Shown here: piece by piece, positions 36,490-47,354 of the stretch
Position numbering within the stretch: position 1 is the first letter of the stretch
Layout of the letters: every line of letters starts with the position of its first letter
Assembly: GCF_015207665.1 (NCBI RefSeq)
Contig: NZ_JADEWL010000042.1
Span: 1-49,257, forward strand
Direction: 5' to 3'
DNA: 49,257 nucleotides
Source: Plectonema cf. radiosum LEGE 06105
GTDB lineage: Bacteria > Cyanobacteriota > Cyanobacteriia > Cyanobacteriales > Nostocaceae
The notes under the pieces: generated by a model
The model's database searches: none
The model's input: the letters and a program-made list of their open reading frames with translations, nothing else
Told to the model about the DNA's origin: nothing
Translations under genes and position numbers: made by a program

Positions 36490-36624
36490 CTGAGAAAAAA
36501 ATTAATCAATCAAGTTTGATTAGTTTTGAGTTATGATTTGTAAGTTATGGGTTAATCAAAGAAAATTATTTTTAACTCCTAACTTCATGTCCTAACTCTC
36601 AACTTGAAACCTTAAAAATAAATA

Positions 36625-36690
36625 GGTAACAGCCAGAGACAGCAGGTGCTTTAACAAAAGCTTAATTTCCTGCCTAGGTTAACATCCCAA
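36625..36690 (+). promoter_or_regulatory. Ribosomal protein L10 leader (rplJ autoregulatory RNA)
   Basis: ACAGCAGGTGCTTTAAC...AAAGCTTAATTTCCTGCCTAGGTTAAC carries the conserved L10-leader layout split here in two halves: GCAGG pairing with CCTGC, an AAGCTTAATT internal loop and an outer GTTAAC/GTAAC closing pair. L10 (with L7/L12) binds this RNA to control rplJL expression. It sits about 160-220 bases before rplJ, as is usual. Confidence 0.8.
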
Positions 36691-36776
36691 CTTCCCTCTT
36701 TTTCCACTCTTAGTAGTAAGAATTAGATGATGTAAGGATTTTGTAATCACTTATCAACAAGTTATTACAAATGTTA

Positions 36777-36812
36777 AACCCTGGCTGTTGCAGTCGGGGT
36801 TTTGTTGTTTGA
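36777..36812 (+). terminator. Attenuator-like hairpin in the rplJ leader
   Basis: AACCCTGGCTG (36777-36787), loop TTG, CAGTCGGGGTT (36791-36801) pair along all 11 positions (two G-U pairs) and are followed by TTGTTGTTTG. Its position between the L10 leader and rplJ suggests transcription attenuation that is controlled by L10 binding. Confidence 0.6.
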
Positions 36813-36847
36813 AAGGTCGATAAAAACCATGAAGGAGGTGATATAAA

Positions 36848-43594: not shown

Positions 43595-44146
43595 TCAACC
43601 TTTGACTAACTGCCAACAAGATTTATCTAAACCTAAACAAACATTTACATACCAATTGGCTAAGGTTTCTGGGAAATCTGGCTTGTGTATACCTCCGAGC
43701 CAGAGAATTAAAGCATCTTCACCATTATCTTGGTAATAACGTCGTCGTCTCCCTGCTGTCTTAAACCCAAATTTTTCGTACAAAGAAATTGCAGCTTGAT
43801 TAGAAACCCGTACCTCTAACGTCGCTCGTTCCAAACCGCGATCGCGAGCTGTCTTGATCAAAGAATAAAGTAAAGCCGCGCCCATCCCTTGACGGTGATA
43901 TTGAGGATTGACTGCCAAAATTGTAATGTGGGCTTCTTCTAAAATTGACCAAAAACAACCCATTCCTAACAGTTTTTCGCCGGTATGGGAGGAAAATATA
44001 CCTTGTATCTCGCTGTTAGGACTATCCATCTCCCTTTCATAGGCAACTTTCGACCACAATCCCCCAAAACAAATTTTATCCAGTTCCAGGATTGCCTCTA
44101 GATGTTCATTAGATAAAGATTGAATTTGTATCTCAAATTTATTCAC
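43595..44146 (-). CDS. rimI: Ribosomal-protein-alanine N-acetyltransferase RimI-like (GNAT)
   Basis: 183 residues from a GTG at 44146, chosen because GAGGAGG lies five bases upstream; the longer frame to 44185 would run into the neighbouring mobile element. GNAT signatures: ILELDKICFGGLWSKVAYE, ITILAVNPQYHRQGMGAALL (acetyl-CoA loop QxxGxG), and LEVRVSNQAAISLYEKFGFK. RimI acetylates the N-terminal Ala of S18 in enterobacteria; the cyanobacterial substrate is inferred. The TGA stop lies in a heptamer repeat. It normally faces lysA, and here the IscB element lies between them. Confidence 0.88.
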   Translation of the reverse strand: MNKFEIQIQSLSNEHLEAILELDKICFGGLWSKVAYEREMDSPNSEIQGIFSSHTGEKLLGMGCFWSILEEAHITILAVNPQYHRQGMGAALLYSLIKTARDRGLERATLEVRVSNQAAISLYEKFGFKTAGRRRRYYQDNGEDALILWLGGIHKPDFPETLANWYVNVCLGLDKSCWQLVKG

Positions 44147-44227
44147 CAAACCTCCTCGCCCCGGAAGCCCCTGTTTTCTAAACATGGGGAGGAAGGGGCA
44201 GGGGAATTCATCCCCCGTCCAGGTATC

Positions 44228-45503
44228 TTAGAATGCATAGGAGTAGCCATCCTTCCCATGAATTGTTGTGCAAAATCTATAACTAATGCCTGTGATACGA
44301 CCTGTTTTGGTGGCAATATCAAAACCTCCTGTTTTACGACATAGAACTCGACCAACGTACTCGCCAATCTTTTTCCCAGAAGTGACAACAGCTTTAACGA
44401 TGTCGCCAGTTTTGAACCCAAAGTGAACTTGTTTGCGTTGCCTGTGGCGAACGGGGAATCCGTATTGATTCGTGCCGCACATCTGCCGAGTCCCCCAACC
44501 AGTACACTTGATGCGTAGTGGTTGCTGAGTAAGTAATTTAATTGTTTCGATATCCCCAACGCAAGCCGCATCAATCCAGTGTTGCTTGGGTAGTTCAAGT
44601 CTTGTTCGGTTGTATTTCGTTTGTCCACCCGTTGTGGTTGTGGTGGGTAGGATGTTTTTTAAGGTGCGAAATAATTCCCAACGAGTTGCATTGACTGCGG
44701 CTGCATCTTTTAATGGCTGCTTGGCTTGGTTTAAAATTTTCTCTAACTTTGCTGGTTCTTTTTTGAGAAAATCTTTGATATCTTTAGAACATTTCTTGCT
44801 GTTACATCGTTTGCAAGATAAGGTTAGGTTACTGACTCTGTTGCTACCTCCTTTTGACCTGGGGTGGATATGCTCAATTTGAAGTGGTACACCAACTTGA
44901 TCGCAGTAAGCGCACTTCCTGCCCCACTTTTCAAGCAAGTATTCCCGTATCTCATACCCATCAAGCTCTCCTTGTTGATACTCAATACCGTCAATTTCTG
45001 GGTTTTGTATTCTTTGGGTGTCAAACTTGACTAACTCCATCGCTATTTGAGTGATTGGGGCATAGCGACAAAGCCGTTTTACCCATGTCTCAATGGTCAG
45101 GACACGATGCATCAGCGATGGAGCAAGCCATCCCTCTTTGCGCTTGCGGTTGTTAAATCGCGGTTGACGGTAACGAGTTTTGCGATTACGACGACTACGG
45201 CTCCCGTGAACGTCTTGATTCTAAGGAATCTTTAATCTGCCATCCTCTATGTTCCAATTCCCCGGCCCAAATAACTTTGTTTTCATCCAAGATTGCAATA
45301 CCCGTAGTTTTGCTTCCAGGGTCAAACTTAATTGTTAATGGCTTGGGGCTAGAATTATCAACCACGTGCTTTAAAATGATTACAAAAGGATATATCCGAT
45401 AAATGGCTGCTTTTTGTTTTGTGAGTAATTTTCTTGCTCGTGCAGGAGGTATTGGATTGAGCGGTTGTTTGTTTTGGTCGATAACGAAAACATAATTTTG
45501 CAT
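44228..45503 (-). pseudogene. iscB: IscB RNA-guided nuclease, reading frame split by a one-base frameshift
   Basis: The first part (45503-45195, 102 aa) holds the PLMP domain (YVFVIDQNKQPLNP...ARARKLL) and RuvC-I (IKFDPGSKTTGIAI), then GELEHRGWQIKDSLESRRS, and hits a stop just after a GGG run at 45203-45205. Removing one G continues the frame into RSRRNRKTRYRQPRFNNRKR (arginine-rich bridge helix) and the second part, open to 44228. That part carries RuvC-II (AMELVKFD), the HNH domain (KCAYCDQ...LQIEHIHPRSKGGSNRVSNL...CKRCN), RuvC-III (HWIDAACVG) and the C-terminal target-interaction domain (GTRQMCGTNQYGFP, FKTGDIVKAV). Joined length is about 425 aa, normal for IscB. It may be a pseudogene, a sequencing error or a recoded gene. 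A separate 294-aa start at 45112 would lack RuvC-I. Confidence 0.88.
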
Positions 45504-45504
45504 T

Positions 45505-45836
45505 GCTGCATACTCCTTGCGGGTAAAGTTTGCTTAGACAATGTTTAGAGTCGGTGAGCCACGGCAGCTCCCCCGGAGGGGAGTCAGTTTCTGTCCCGTC
45601 ATTAGCGAAGCGTGTCCGCGCTTGACATAGTGGCGAACCCGTCTCGGGTACTATCCAAACGACACTGGTTTATTCTCTGTAAGCCTGTTTAATCGCTTGA
45701 TTCTAGAGCTTGGGACTAGCAAGCATCCCAAGGTAGGAACTTTAACTCTTGCTCTAAACGAGTAGTCGGGTCAGGTAGAGTCAACCAGCAAGCCCCCGCC
45801 TTATAGCCATGGGGTTGCTACTTAACGAGAGAACCC
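45505..45836 (-). ncRNA. omegaRNA (HEARO RNA) of the IscB element
   Basis: About 330 bases directly upstream of iscB, GC-richer than the surroundings, with no reading frame and many hairpins. Plus-strand coordinates of stems: CTCCCC/GGGGAG (45568-45573 / 45578-45583), AAGCG/CGCTT (45608-45612 / 45619-45623), ACCCG/CGGGT (45637-45641 / 45645-45649), CTTGGGA/TCCCAAG (45709-45715 / 45726-45732) and AGCAAGCCCC/GGGGTTGCT (45787-45796 / 45811-45819). Position, size and content match HEARO RNAs, the guide RNAs of IscB. Its 5' end (right side, near 45836) would run into host DNA, where the guide is copied from. Confidence 0.8.
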
Positions 45837-45929
45837 TAACTTTATTGGTTATGGTACATCGCTCTTTGTACACTGGGAAACGGGAGATAAATGTCGCCCA
45901 GAATTCAAATACAAACAACTTATATTCTT

Positions 45930-47354
45930 ATGGTATCGACTCACCCTGCTGGGGTTCAAGAAAATGGTAGTAAATATATACTATCTCAGGGCAATCAAAA
46001 AGAAACTGTTTCGCCGAATCAATCGCTTTTACCTTTGAGTGCAAAAATAAACGATCGCGATCATTTAGAAATCGGGGGTTGTGATGTCACAACCTTAGTA
46101 AAACAGTTTGGTTCTCCGCTGTATATTTTAGACGAAGAAAGCTTGCGAACTGCTTGCCGTCAGTATCGCGATAGCTTCAAGCAATACTATCAAGGTGAAT
46201 CGACAGTATTATACGCTTCCAAAGCATGGAATTGTTTGGCTGTGTGCGCCATCGTCGCATCGGAAGATTTGGGAATAGATGTAGCTTCTGGTGGTGAATT
46301 ATATACTGCGATTCAGAGTGGTGTAAATGGCGATAAAATTTATTTGCACAGCAATAATAAATCTCGTGAAGAATTGATTTTTGCTGTGGAATCCGGTTGT
46401 ACGATTGTGGTGGATAATTGGTATGAGTTGAACACTTTAGTCGAACTGGCTAGTAAAAATGGTTCTTCAAGCTGTGTGCCATACCGGATTATGCTGCGTC
46501 TGACTCCGGGTATTGATTGTCATACTCACGATTACATCCGCACGGGACAGTTAGATAGTAAATTTGGTTTTGACCCTAATGCACTTGATGATTTGTTTGC
46601 TTTTGTCAGCGAACAATCATCAGTATTTAATTGCGTTGGTTTACACGCTCACATCGGCTCGCAAATTTTTGAGAAACAACCTCATCAAGACTTGGCTGCG
46701 CTGATGGTAGAGTGGTTGAGAAAAGCCGCAACTTATGGTATTAACATTAGCGAGTTAAACGTTGGTGGCGGTTTGGGAATAAAATATATAGAATCAGATG
46801 ACCCACCAAGTATAGAAGAATGGGTAAAGCCGATTTGCCAGGTAATTGAAAAAGCTTGCCTTGATGGGAATCTTCCCTTACCAAAATTATTATGCGAACC
46901 GGGACGTTCTTTAATCGGTACGACCTGCGTTACAGCATATAGTATTGGTGCATCCAAAGAAATTCCCGGAATCCGTAAATATATTGCTGTAGACGGTGGA
47001 ATGTCAGATAATCCGCGTCCAATTACTTACCAGTCAATTTATCGAGCAGTGGTGGCGAACAAAATGACCGTACCATTGAGCGAAACAGTCACGATTGCTG
47101 GTAAACATTGCGAATCAGGGGATATTCTAATTAAGGATGCCCAACTTCCCAAAACAGAAGCGGGAGATATTCTCGTAGTGATGGGAACAGGTGCATATAA
47201 TTACAGTATGTCATCCAATTATAACCGTTTGCCTCGACCAGCAGCAGTTTTAGTTGGGAATGGGGAAGCAAGTTTAATTTTGCAACGCGAATCATACCAA
47301 GACTTGATTCGTCAAGATTGCTTACCAGAACGACTGAAAAAAAACGAACAATAA
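45930..47354 (+). CDS. lysA: Diaminopimelate decarboxylase
   Basis: PLP-dependent decarboxylation of meso-diaminopimelate to L-lysine. I take the ATG at 45930 (MVSTHPAGVQ; 474 aa); the frame is also open from an ATG at 45891. Fold type III features: the PLP lysine in VLYASKAWNCLA, LRLTPGIDCHTHDYIRTG, HAHIGSQIFE, NVGGGLGIKY, CEPGRSLIG, and the second-subunit Cys in GKHCESGDIL. The preceding DNA belongs to the IscB element, so its promoter may be disturbed or moved into the 90 bp after the element. Confidence 0.94.
   Translation: MVSTHPAGVQENGSKYILSQGNQKETVSPNQSLLPLSAKINDRDHLEIGGCDVTTLVKQFGSPLYILDEESLRTACRQYRDSFKQYYQGESTVLYASKAWNCLAVCAIVASEDLGIDVASGGELYTAIQSGVNGDKIYLHSNNKSREELIFAVESGCTIVVDNWYELNTLVELASKNGSSSCVPYRIMLRLTPGIDCHTHDYIRTGQLDSKFGFDPNALDDLFAFVSEQSSVFNCVGLHAHIGSQIFEKQPHQDLAALMVEWLRKAATYGINISELNVGGGLGIKYIESDDPPSIEEWVKPICQVIEKACLDGNLPLPKLLCEPGRSLIGTTCVTAYSIGASKEIPGIRKYIAVDGGMSDNPRPITYQSIYRAVVANKMTVPLSETVTIAGKHCESGDILIKDAQLPKTEAGDILVVMGTGAYNYSMSSNYNRLPRPAAVLVGNGEASLILQRESYQDLIRQDCLPERLKKNEQ

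What the first reader, a model, noticed from the sequence alone, without database searches (positions are those of the whole stretch)
44165..45840. IscB-omegaRNA element wedged between rimI and lysA
The full IscB domain order is readable and a densely structured non-coding stretch with the features of HEARO/omegaRNA sits directly upstream. No transposase is present. The insertion splits a pair of divergent housekeeping genes, so the element also takes over their upstream regions. By the known logic of IscB, the guide should be copied from host DNA just outside the scaffold end, here the plus-strand bases around 45837-45855 beside lysA.
Basis: partly seen in the sequence, partly recalled or inferred. 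Interest (0 to 1): 0.82.

Follow-up and report, generated by a model that had tools for sequence, protein, structure and literature searches.

The report
Broken IscB element at rimI start
A mobile IscB element with its own guide RNA has landed exactly in front of the start codon of a cyanobacterial housekeeping gene; relatives still show the empty site, and this copy's nuclease gene has since lost its reading frame.

Summary
The finding is real. An IscB-omegaRNA element lies on the minus strand at window 44147-45840 (1694 bp; a 2-bp ambiguity also allows 44145-45838). It was inserted between rimI and lysA: 13 of 13 aligned relatives lack it. The HEARO model matches 45523-45826 (E 5e-13) but below Rfam's gathering score (68.4 v 83). 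No transposase match lies on the window's contig.

Two corrections. (1) The iscB frame is broken: residues 1-101 and 101-424 lie in different frames meeting near 45201, so this copy is probably dead as a nuclease in cis. (2) The insertion point is the rimI start codon. The GTGA there fits the NTGA motif in print for IsrB, and the element's end puts GGAGG four bases before that GTG.

The guide is minus 45856-45841, joined to GTGAAT in empty alleles; no second target stands out in the genome.

Among related elements, ATG-type ends sit at start codons in 24 of 39 cases against 23.6% expected (p 5e-7), but GTG-type ends like this one in 5 of 35 against 14.3%, no excess. New member of a known kind.

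The parts
44147..45840 (-). whole inserted element, 1694 bp (44145-45838 equally possible: 2-bp AC shared by both junctions)
   Evidence: break points of the alignment to G007 and G001 with 2-bp overlap; empty-site alignment; ends conserved in related elements
45841..45856 (-). host-derived guide segment, 5'-TACCATAACCAATAAA-3' on the minus strand (length of 16 assumed from recalled IscB systems)
   Evidence: variable in related elements right outside the conserved scaffold start; in the empty relatives L010 and L011 followed directly by GTGAAT
45504..45840 (-). omegaRNA (HEARO) region; Rfam RF02033 match 45523-45826
   Evidence: 68.4 bits, E 5.1e-13, gathering 83
45835..45840 (-). first helix, 5' strand GUUAGG at the exact element end, able to pair with CCUGAC at 45770-45775
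   Evidence: sequence; in relatives GUCAGG/CCUGAC, GUCAGC/GCUGAC, GUCAAC/GUUGAC
45556..45649 (-). 94-nt extra domain inside the omegaRNA
   Evidence: absent in 16 of 17 aligned close relatives; L043 has an extra stretch of about 58 nt at the same place
45195..45503 (-). iscB 5' fragment, 102 aa: PLMP and RuvC-I
44228..45202 (-). iscB 3' fragment in another frame: bridge helix, RuvC-II, HNH, RuvC-III, C-terminal domain (the ORF from the first ATG starts at 45112)
   Evidence: domain limits other than HNH read from the sequence
44147..44227 (-). 3' end of the element
   Evidence: 81 nt between iscB stop and GTGA; its last 22 nt recur in related elements with unrelated downstream DNA
44151..44155 (-). 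Shine-Dalgarno-like GGAGG, 4 nt before the rimI GTG
   Evidence: sequence
44143..44146 (-). GTGA: target-adjacent motif; its GTG (44146-44144) is the rimI start codon
   Evidence: empty sites; in-frame GTG at this position in 12 of 13 relatives, ATG in L012
43595..44146 (-). rimI, 183 aa from the GTG
   Evidence: NCBIfam TIGR01575 above cut-off (run on the longer ORF); Pfam
45891..47354 (+). lysA (divergent neighbour, intact)
   Evidence: NCBIfam TIGR01048 above cut-off

Best explanation
This is a cyanobacterial IscB-omegaRNA (HEARO) element of the IS200/IS605-like kind that lacks its own transposase. It inserted, co-directionally, directly 5' of the start codon of rimI. By the logic of such systems (recalled, and inferred here) an RNA read from the lysA side would carry host sequence as guide and then the scaffold, and would direct IscB to the unoccupied allele, guide plus GTGA, so that the element is kept or copied back after loss. 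Shown here: precise ends, empty sites, host-derived guide position, the GTGA motif and its identity with the rimI start codon, a Shine-Dalgarno-like GGAGG at the element end. Inferred: transcription, guide length, cleavage, use of GGAGG by rimI. The iscB frame is broken, so this copy most likely no longer makes a working nuclease. It could act only as a guide RNA for another IscB, for example the intact one on contig C110.
For: Families and RNA match. The same-genus genomes G007 and G001 (96-97% identity on the lysA side, 94-95% on the rimI side) are contiguous across the site, and 13 of 13 aligned relatives lack the element. Scaffold start GT[C/T]A and a 3' end followed by GTGR recur in close elements; recurrent 3' ends before RTGR were accepted in 103 of 178 elements. 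NTGA and NTG motifs are in print for IsrB (PMC9581776, passages). In-frame start codon at the same position in relatives: GTG in 12 of 13 aligned, ATG in L012. Own genome: one intact IscB (C110), nine HEARO matches of which six are over cut-off, ten Y1_Tnp matches. The guide-plus-motif pattern has no exact or one-mismatch match elsewhere in the genome.
Against: The HEARO score is below gathering; the 94-nt extra domain could impair the RNA. No promoter-like site was found at 45500-46050 (a sigma-70 consensus scan only). No expression data. The frame break rests on one draft assembly of 323 contigs and could be a sequencing error.
Confidence: 0.85

Rival explanations
1. The element is fully active: the frame break is an assembly error, or the ribosome shifts frame there, so this copy makes a whole IscB.
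For: Both fragments are otherwise well kept, with no stop inside either match; the assembly is a draft.
Against: The aligned relatives L016 and L017 have no frame shift here. No slippery motif was recognised (by eye only).
Confidence: 0.2
2. The element is being domesticated: its end has become the leader and ribosome-binding site of rimI, and the guide RNA is a regulator rather than a homing device.
For: GGAGG lies 4 nt before the GTG; none is seen in the 12 bases before the start codon in the 13 aligned empty alleles. IscB is broken while the rest is kept.
Against: The element was seen at this place in one genome only, so there is no evidence of conservation. Across related elements a Shine-Dalgarno-like end does not predict insertion at a start codon (17 of 43 with it v 12 of 31 without).
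Confidence: 0.12
3. That the site is a start codon is ordinary chance: an insertion into a 4-base motif that happened to be a start codon, seen because insertions inside genes are lost.
For: GTG-type ends, like this one, are start-like in 5 of 35 against 14.3% expected, no excess (p 0.57). With a loose null 30.3% of non-disrupting RTGR sites are start-like and 27 of 72 is not significant (p 0.12).
Against: Over both types the excess stands with the matched null: 29 of 74 v 20.0% (p 1e-4); it comes from ATG-type ends, 24 of 39 v 23.6% (p 5e-7).
Confidence: 0.6

Closest known systems
IscB-omegaRNA (OMEGA) elements; NCBIfam NF040563, Pfam PF14239
   Same: PLMP/RuvC/HNH order, omegaRNA 5' of the gene, host-derived guide, motif on the far side of the element
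   Different: reading frame broken near the bridge helix; no adjacent transposase
HEARO RNA, Rfam RF02033
   Same: full-length model match 1-211 immediately upstream of iscB
   Different: score below gathering; 94-nt extra domain between the last hairpin and the 3' strand
IsrB (PMC9581776, passages)
   Same: NTGA/NTG target-adjacent motif; RuvC and PLMP homology
   Different: this gene has an HNH domain, which IsrB lacks
IS200/IS605 elements (features recalled)
   Same: insertion without clear duplication (at most 2 bp), short target motif beside one end
   Different: no Y1 transposase in the element; mobilisation would need one in trans

Membership tests
IscB | split RuvC with inserted HNH and N-terminal PLMP | tested here: met
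   RRXRR in both fragments, HNH in the second; NF040563 cut-off of 175 bits passed by fragment 2 alone (265 bits)
IscB | intact open reading frame | tested here: not met
   two frames
IscB | RNA-guided DNA cleavage | not testable with these tools
   needs biochemistry
HEARO / omegaRNA (RF02033) | covariance-model match at Rfam gathering score | tested here: not met
   68.4 v 83 bits
HEARO / omegaRNA (RF02033) | full-length significant model match directly 5' of iscB | tested here: met
   model 1-211, E 5e-13
IscB/OMEGA mobile element | empty site in relatives and guide equal to flanking host DNA | tested here: met
   that the RNA really carries this guide was not tested
IscB/OMEGA mobile element | target-adjacent motif NTG(A) at the far end | tested here: met
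   GTGA in the window; in the pool RTGR holds at 95 of 95 ends by construction of the rule, 87 of them RTGA
IS200/IS605 insertion sequence | Y1 transposase gene in the element | tested here: not met
   none on the window's contig C308

The most novel reading that the evidence does not exclude
Many IscB elements are start-codon dockers: their target-adjacent motif (ATGA above all) is chosen or kept because it is a gene's start codon, and many element ends bring their own ribosome-binding site, so the host gene is still translated while its promoter drives the guide RNA. ATG-type ends are start-like in 24 of 39 cases v 23.6% expected; one subfamily, defined after the fact (end TCTCCTGGAGGTTTAG before ATGA), opens frames of 60 codons or more at 15 of 16 sites. 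The window's element would be a GTG-type member of the same plan, although GTG-type ends as a group show no excess.
Probability: 0.3. Interest if true: 0.62.

Novelty: new member of a known kind. Interest (0 to 1): 0.42.

Why it matters
The site gives a clean natural experiment: filled and empty alleles in near relatives, an exact guide and motif, and a start codon as the target. It allows a direct test of whether the element's end supplies translation to the gene behind it, and of whether a guide RNA whose own IscB is broken can still be used by another IscB in the cell. If start-codon docking holds for ATG-type elements it would help explain how they persist at low cost.

Tried and rejected
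Programmed frameshifting was considered and set aside: close homologues show no shift and no slippery motif was recognised by eye. The 94-nt extra RNA domain was first taken for a recent insertion of a dispersed repeat. A search of the own genome gave 19 other places, each covering at most 32 of its 97 query bases, and L043 has an extra stretch at the same place, so a lineage-specific expansion is as likely. Shared ancestry of the two was not proven; the fold of the window stretch is not significant (z -1.23). The Python length survey of this domain (63 of 178 measured) was unreliable because the pattern caught other places, and is not used.

A Shine-Dalgarno-like end as the driver of docking was tested and not supported: 17 of 43 v 12 of 31, and for open frames of 60 codons 34 of 61 v 14 of 34, p 0.20. 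A first count with a rule that required such a motif (26 of 56) was replaced because it could pick a gene's own motif. A by-eye count (22 of 50 with 60-codon frames; decoys 106 of 287) was replaced because of reader bias. The null (12.2%, p 4e-9) used a stricter definition for the null than for the observed sites; searches use one definition for both and replace it. Because of them the odds of the chance rival were raised from 0.45 to 0.6.

Papers not held: Weinberg 2009, Meers 2023, Kapitonov 2015, each looked up by a DOI recalled from memory. That HEARO elements insert at ATGA or GTGA is my recollection of the first and comes from no call. Searches showed no title or abstract on start-codon insertion of IscB; several of these lists were cut (for example 20 of 35 papers shown), so this is weak evidence of absence.

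Full report
WHAT IS THERE. The window lies in a 7.60-Mb draft genome of 323 contigs. Some genomes of its family have contigs that match, by length, named records of Scytonema, Tolypothrix and Nostoc, so the host is a cyanobacterium of that group (inference). On the minus strand at 45503-44228 lies an iscB gene: RRXRR (PF14239) in both parts, HNH in the second, and NCBIfam guided_IscB. It is split between two frames. The first ORF ends at 45195 and the second frame is open from 45202 to 44231. The break lies in the arginine-rich stretch after RuvC-I, the bridge helix of IscB (name recalled). The catalytic motifs, read by eye, are present in the two pieces: RuvC-I in the first; RuvC-II, HNH and RuvC-III in the second. 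Chains of solved IscB structures match each piece.

THE RNA. Rfam HEARO matches 45826-45523 minus over the full model, E 5.1e-13, 68.4 bits, below the gathering score of 83; at gathering the window shows only a tRNA and an L10 leader. A 94-nt stretch (45649-45556) is extra against 16 of 17 aligned close relatives; the exception, L043, has an extra stretch of about 58 nt in the same place with a similar layout. Free energy alone is unremarkable (z -1.09). In the alignment the scaffold starts with GT[C/T]A at the element end and can pair with a TGAC-type partner downstream: GUCAGG/CCUGAC, GUCAGC/GCUGAC, GUCAAC/GUUGAC, and in the window GUUAGG/CCUGAC. These compensating pairs, read by eye, support the helix.

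THE INSERTION. Against same-genus genomes G007 and G001 the match breaks at window 44146 and 45839 with a 2-bp overlap. Of the 17 rimI-lysA loci fetched from relatives, 13 were aligned with the joined window flanks and 13 of 13 lack the element; L025 has about 185 bp of other DNA there. The other four (L022, L023, L026, L027), left out for weaker flank matches, have gaps of 274 to 385 bp between rimI and lysA matches, too short for the element. By comparison with related elements the ends are best set at 44147 and 45840. The DNA outside the scaffold start differs between elements, as expected for a host-derived guide. In the empty alleles of L010 and L011, 5'-TACCATAACCAATAAA is followed by GTGAAT.

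THE START CODON. The GTG of that GTGA is the rimI start. In the 13 aligned relatives an in-frame start codon stands at the same place, GTG in 12 and ATG in L012. In L012, L013, L014, L018, L020 and L021 it is the first in-frame start after a stop; in L010, L011, L015, L019, L024, L025 and L028 other in-frame starts lie upstream. So the element sits between rimI and its native upstream DNA, in the same direction, and its own end places GGAGG four bases before the GTG. lysA keeps its own upstream DNA. No sigma-70-like promoter was found at 45500-46050; transcription is unproven.

IS THE GUIDE SPECIFIC? In the own genome, guide plus RTGR with up to three mismatches gave 64 matches, and the reversed control pattern also 64. 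The window's own junction matches with one mismatch; three others have two mismatches, of which one (C167) keeps an RTGR motif. No second target stands out.

THE REST OF THE GENOME. Nine HEARO matches (six over cut-off), one intact IscB of 66% identity on C110, an IscB-like gene on C279, and ten Y1_Tnp matches elsewhere, two of them pieces at one place. Three HEARO loci (L003, L004, L006) are mini-elements of 464, 436 and 438 bp with an IscB-type end at ATGA and no iscB. A trans-acting system is possible but unproven.

DO RELATED ELEMENTS SIT AT START CODONS? I pooled 178 elements: the window, 77 from the loci that covered most of IscB, duplicates removed, and 100 fetched out of a longer, capped list. 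At least two elements (L050/L166, L052/L165) are in the pool twice; the later independence step deals with such pairs. The 3' end was set, without looking at reading frames, as the 3'-most RTGR whose preceding 22 nt agree on average in at least 16 bases with the best three other elements that have unrelated downstream DNA. It was accepted in 103; 95 were independent sites; a scaffold start was found in 74 of these, so 104 of 178 rows were dropped. A site counts as start-like if the RTG opens at least 60 codons and its frame is closed within 30 codons upstream of the scaffold start: 29 of 74.

The fair null uses the same definition, with a simple gene model, on RTGR sites of the flanks that lie outside genes or at gene starts. 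Expected 20.0% (241 of 1207), p 1e-4; with a minimum of 80 codons 26 of 74 v 15.7%, p 3e-5; with 100 codons 25 of 74 v 12.3%, p 1e-6. Split by type, ATG ends are start-like in 24 of 39 v 23.6% (p 5e-7) and GTG ends in 5 of 35 v 14.3% (p 0.57). Other nulls: 6.2% of all 7953 RTGR sites (27 of 72, p 7e-15) and, with a loose definition of non-disrupting sites, 30.3% (p 0.12, not significant). So the excess is real for ATG-type ends and absent for the GTG type to which the window belongs. The end rule misplaced a few ends (for example L258, L246, L251, seen by eye) and the start rule takes the outermost candidate (L045 looks misplaced); these were counted as they fell. Related elements share ancestry, so p-values overstate independence. 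Nine docked genes chosen from the start-like or open-frame sites, and rimI, match their first Pfam domain from residue 1 to 20, as expected for true starts.

WHAT IS KNOWN. IsrB nucleases use NTGA or NTG motifs, and the last hairpin of their RNA holds the Shine-Dalgarno sequence of isrB itself (PMC9581776, passages). That is at the other end from the motif described here. PMC9755519 (passages) reports only a few HEARO nucleases beside TnpA transposases, as here. PMC2775950 (passages) describes IS605 stem loops beside lipoprotein genes, at their 3' ends. That HEARO elements prefer ATGA or GTGA is recalled, not read.

VERDICT. A genuine, precisely placed, probably decaying IscB-omegaRNA element; a known kind. 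The extra interest is the start-codon target with a ribosome-binding-site-like end; across relatives docking at ATG start codons is in excess, but for GTG-type elements the place is what chance and survival would give.

Noticed in passing
L003:1501-1964 (+); L004:1501-1936 (+); L006, reverse strand (own genome contigs C208, C292, C148): Miniature HEARO elements of 464, 436 and 438 bp with omegaRNA and an IscB-type end at ATGA but no iscB; in L006 the ATG opens a long frame that reads, by eye, as the start of a kinase-like gene.
   Followed up: partly
L005 (contig C157): A second degraded IscB in the own genome (fragments, one with a stop) beside a HEARO match over the cut-off.
   Followed up: no
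L043 and window 45556-45649: Extra omegaRNA stretch at the same place in two elements, hairpin then closing stem by eye, with different sequence and length.
   Followed up: partly
window 36615-36814: Rfam L10 leader with a long internal insertion relative to the model.
   Followed up: no
L235, L247, L256: Three elements with near-identical ends followed by similar downstream DNA, perhaps a repeated target or a duplicated region.
   Followed up: no
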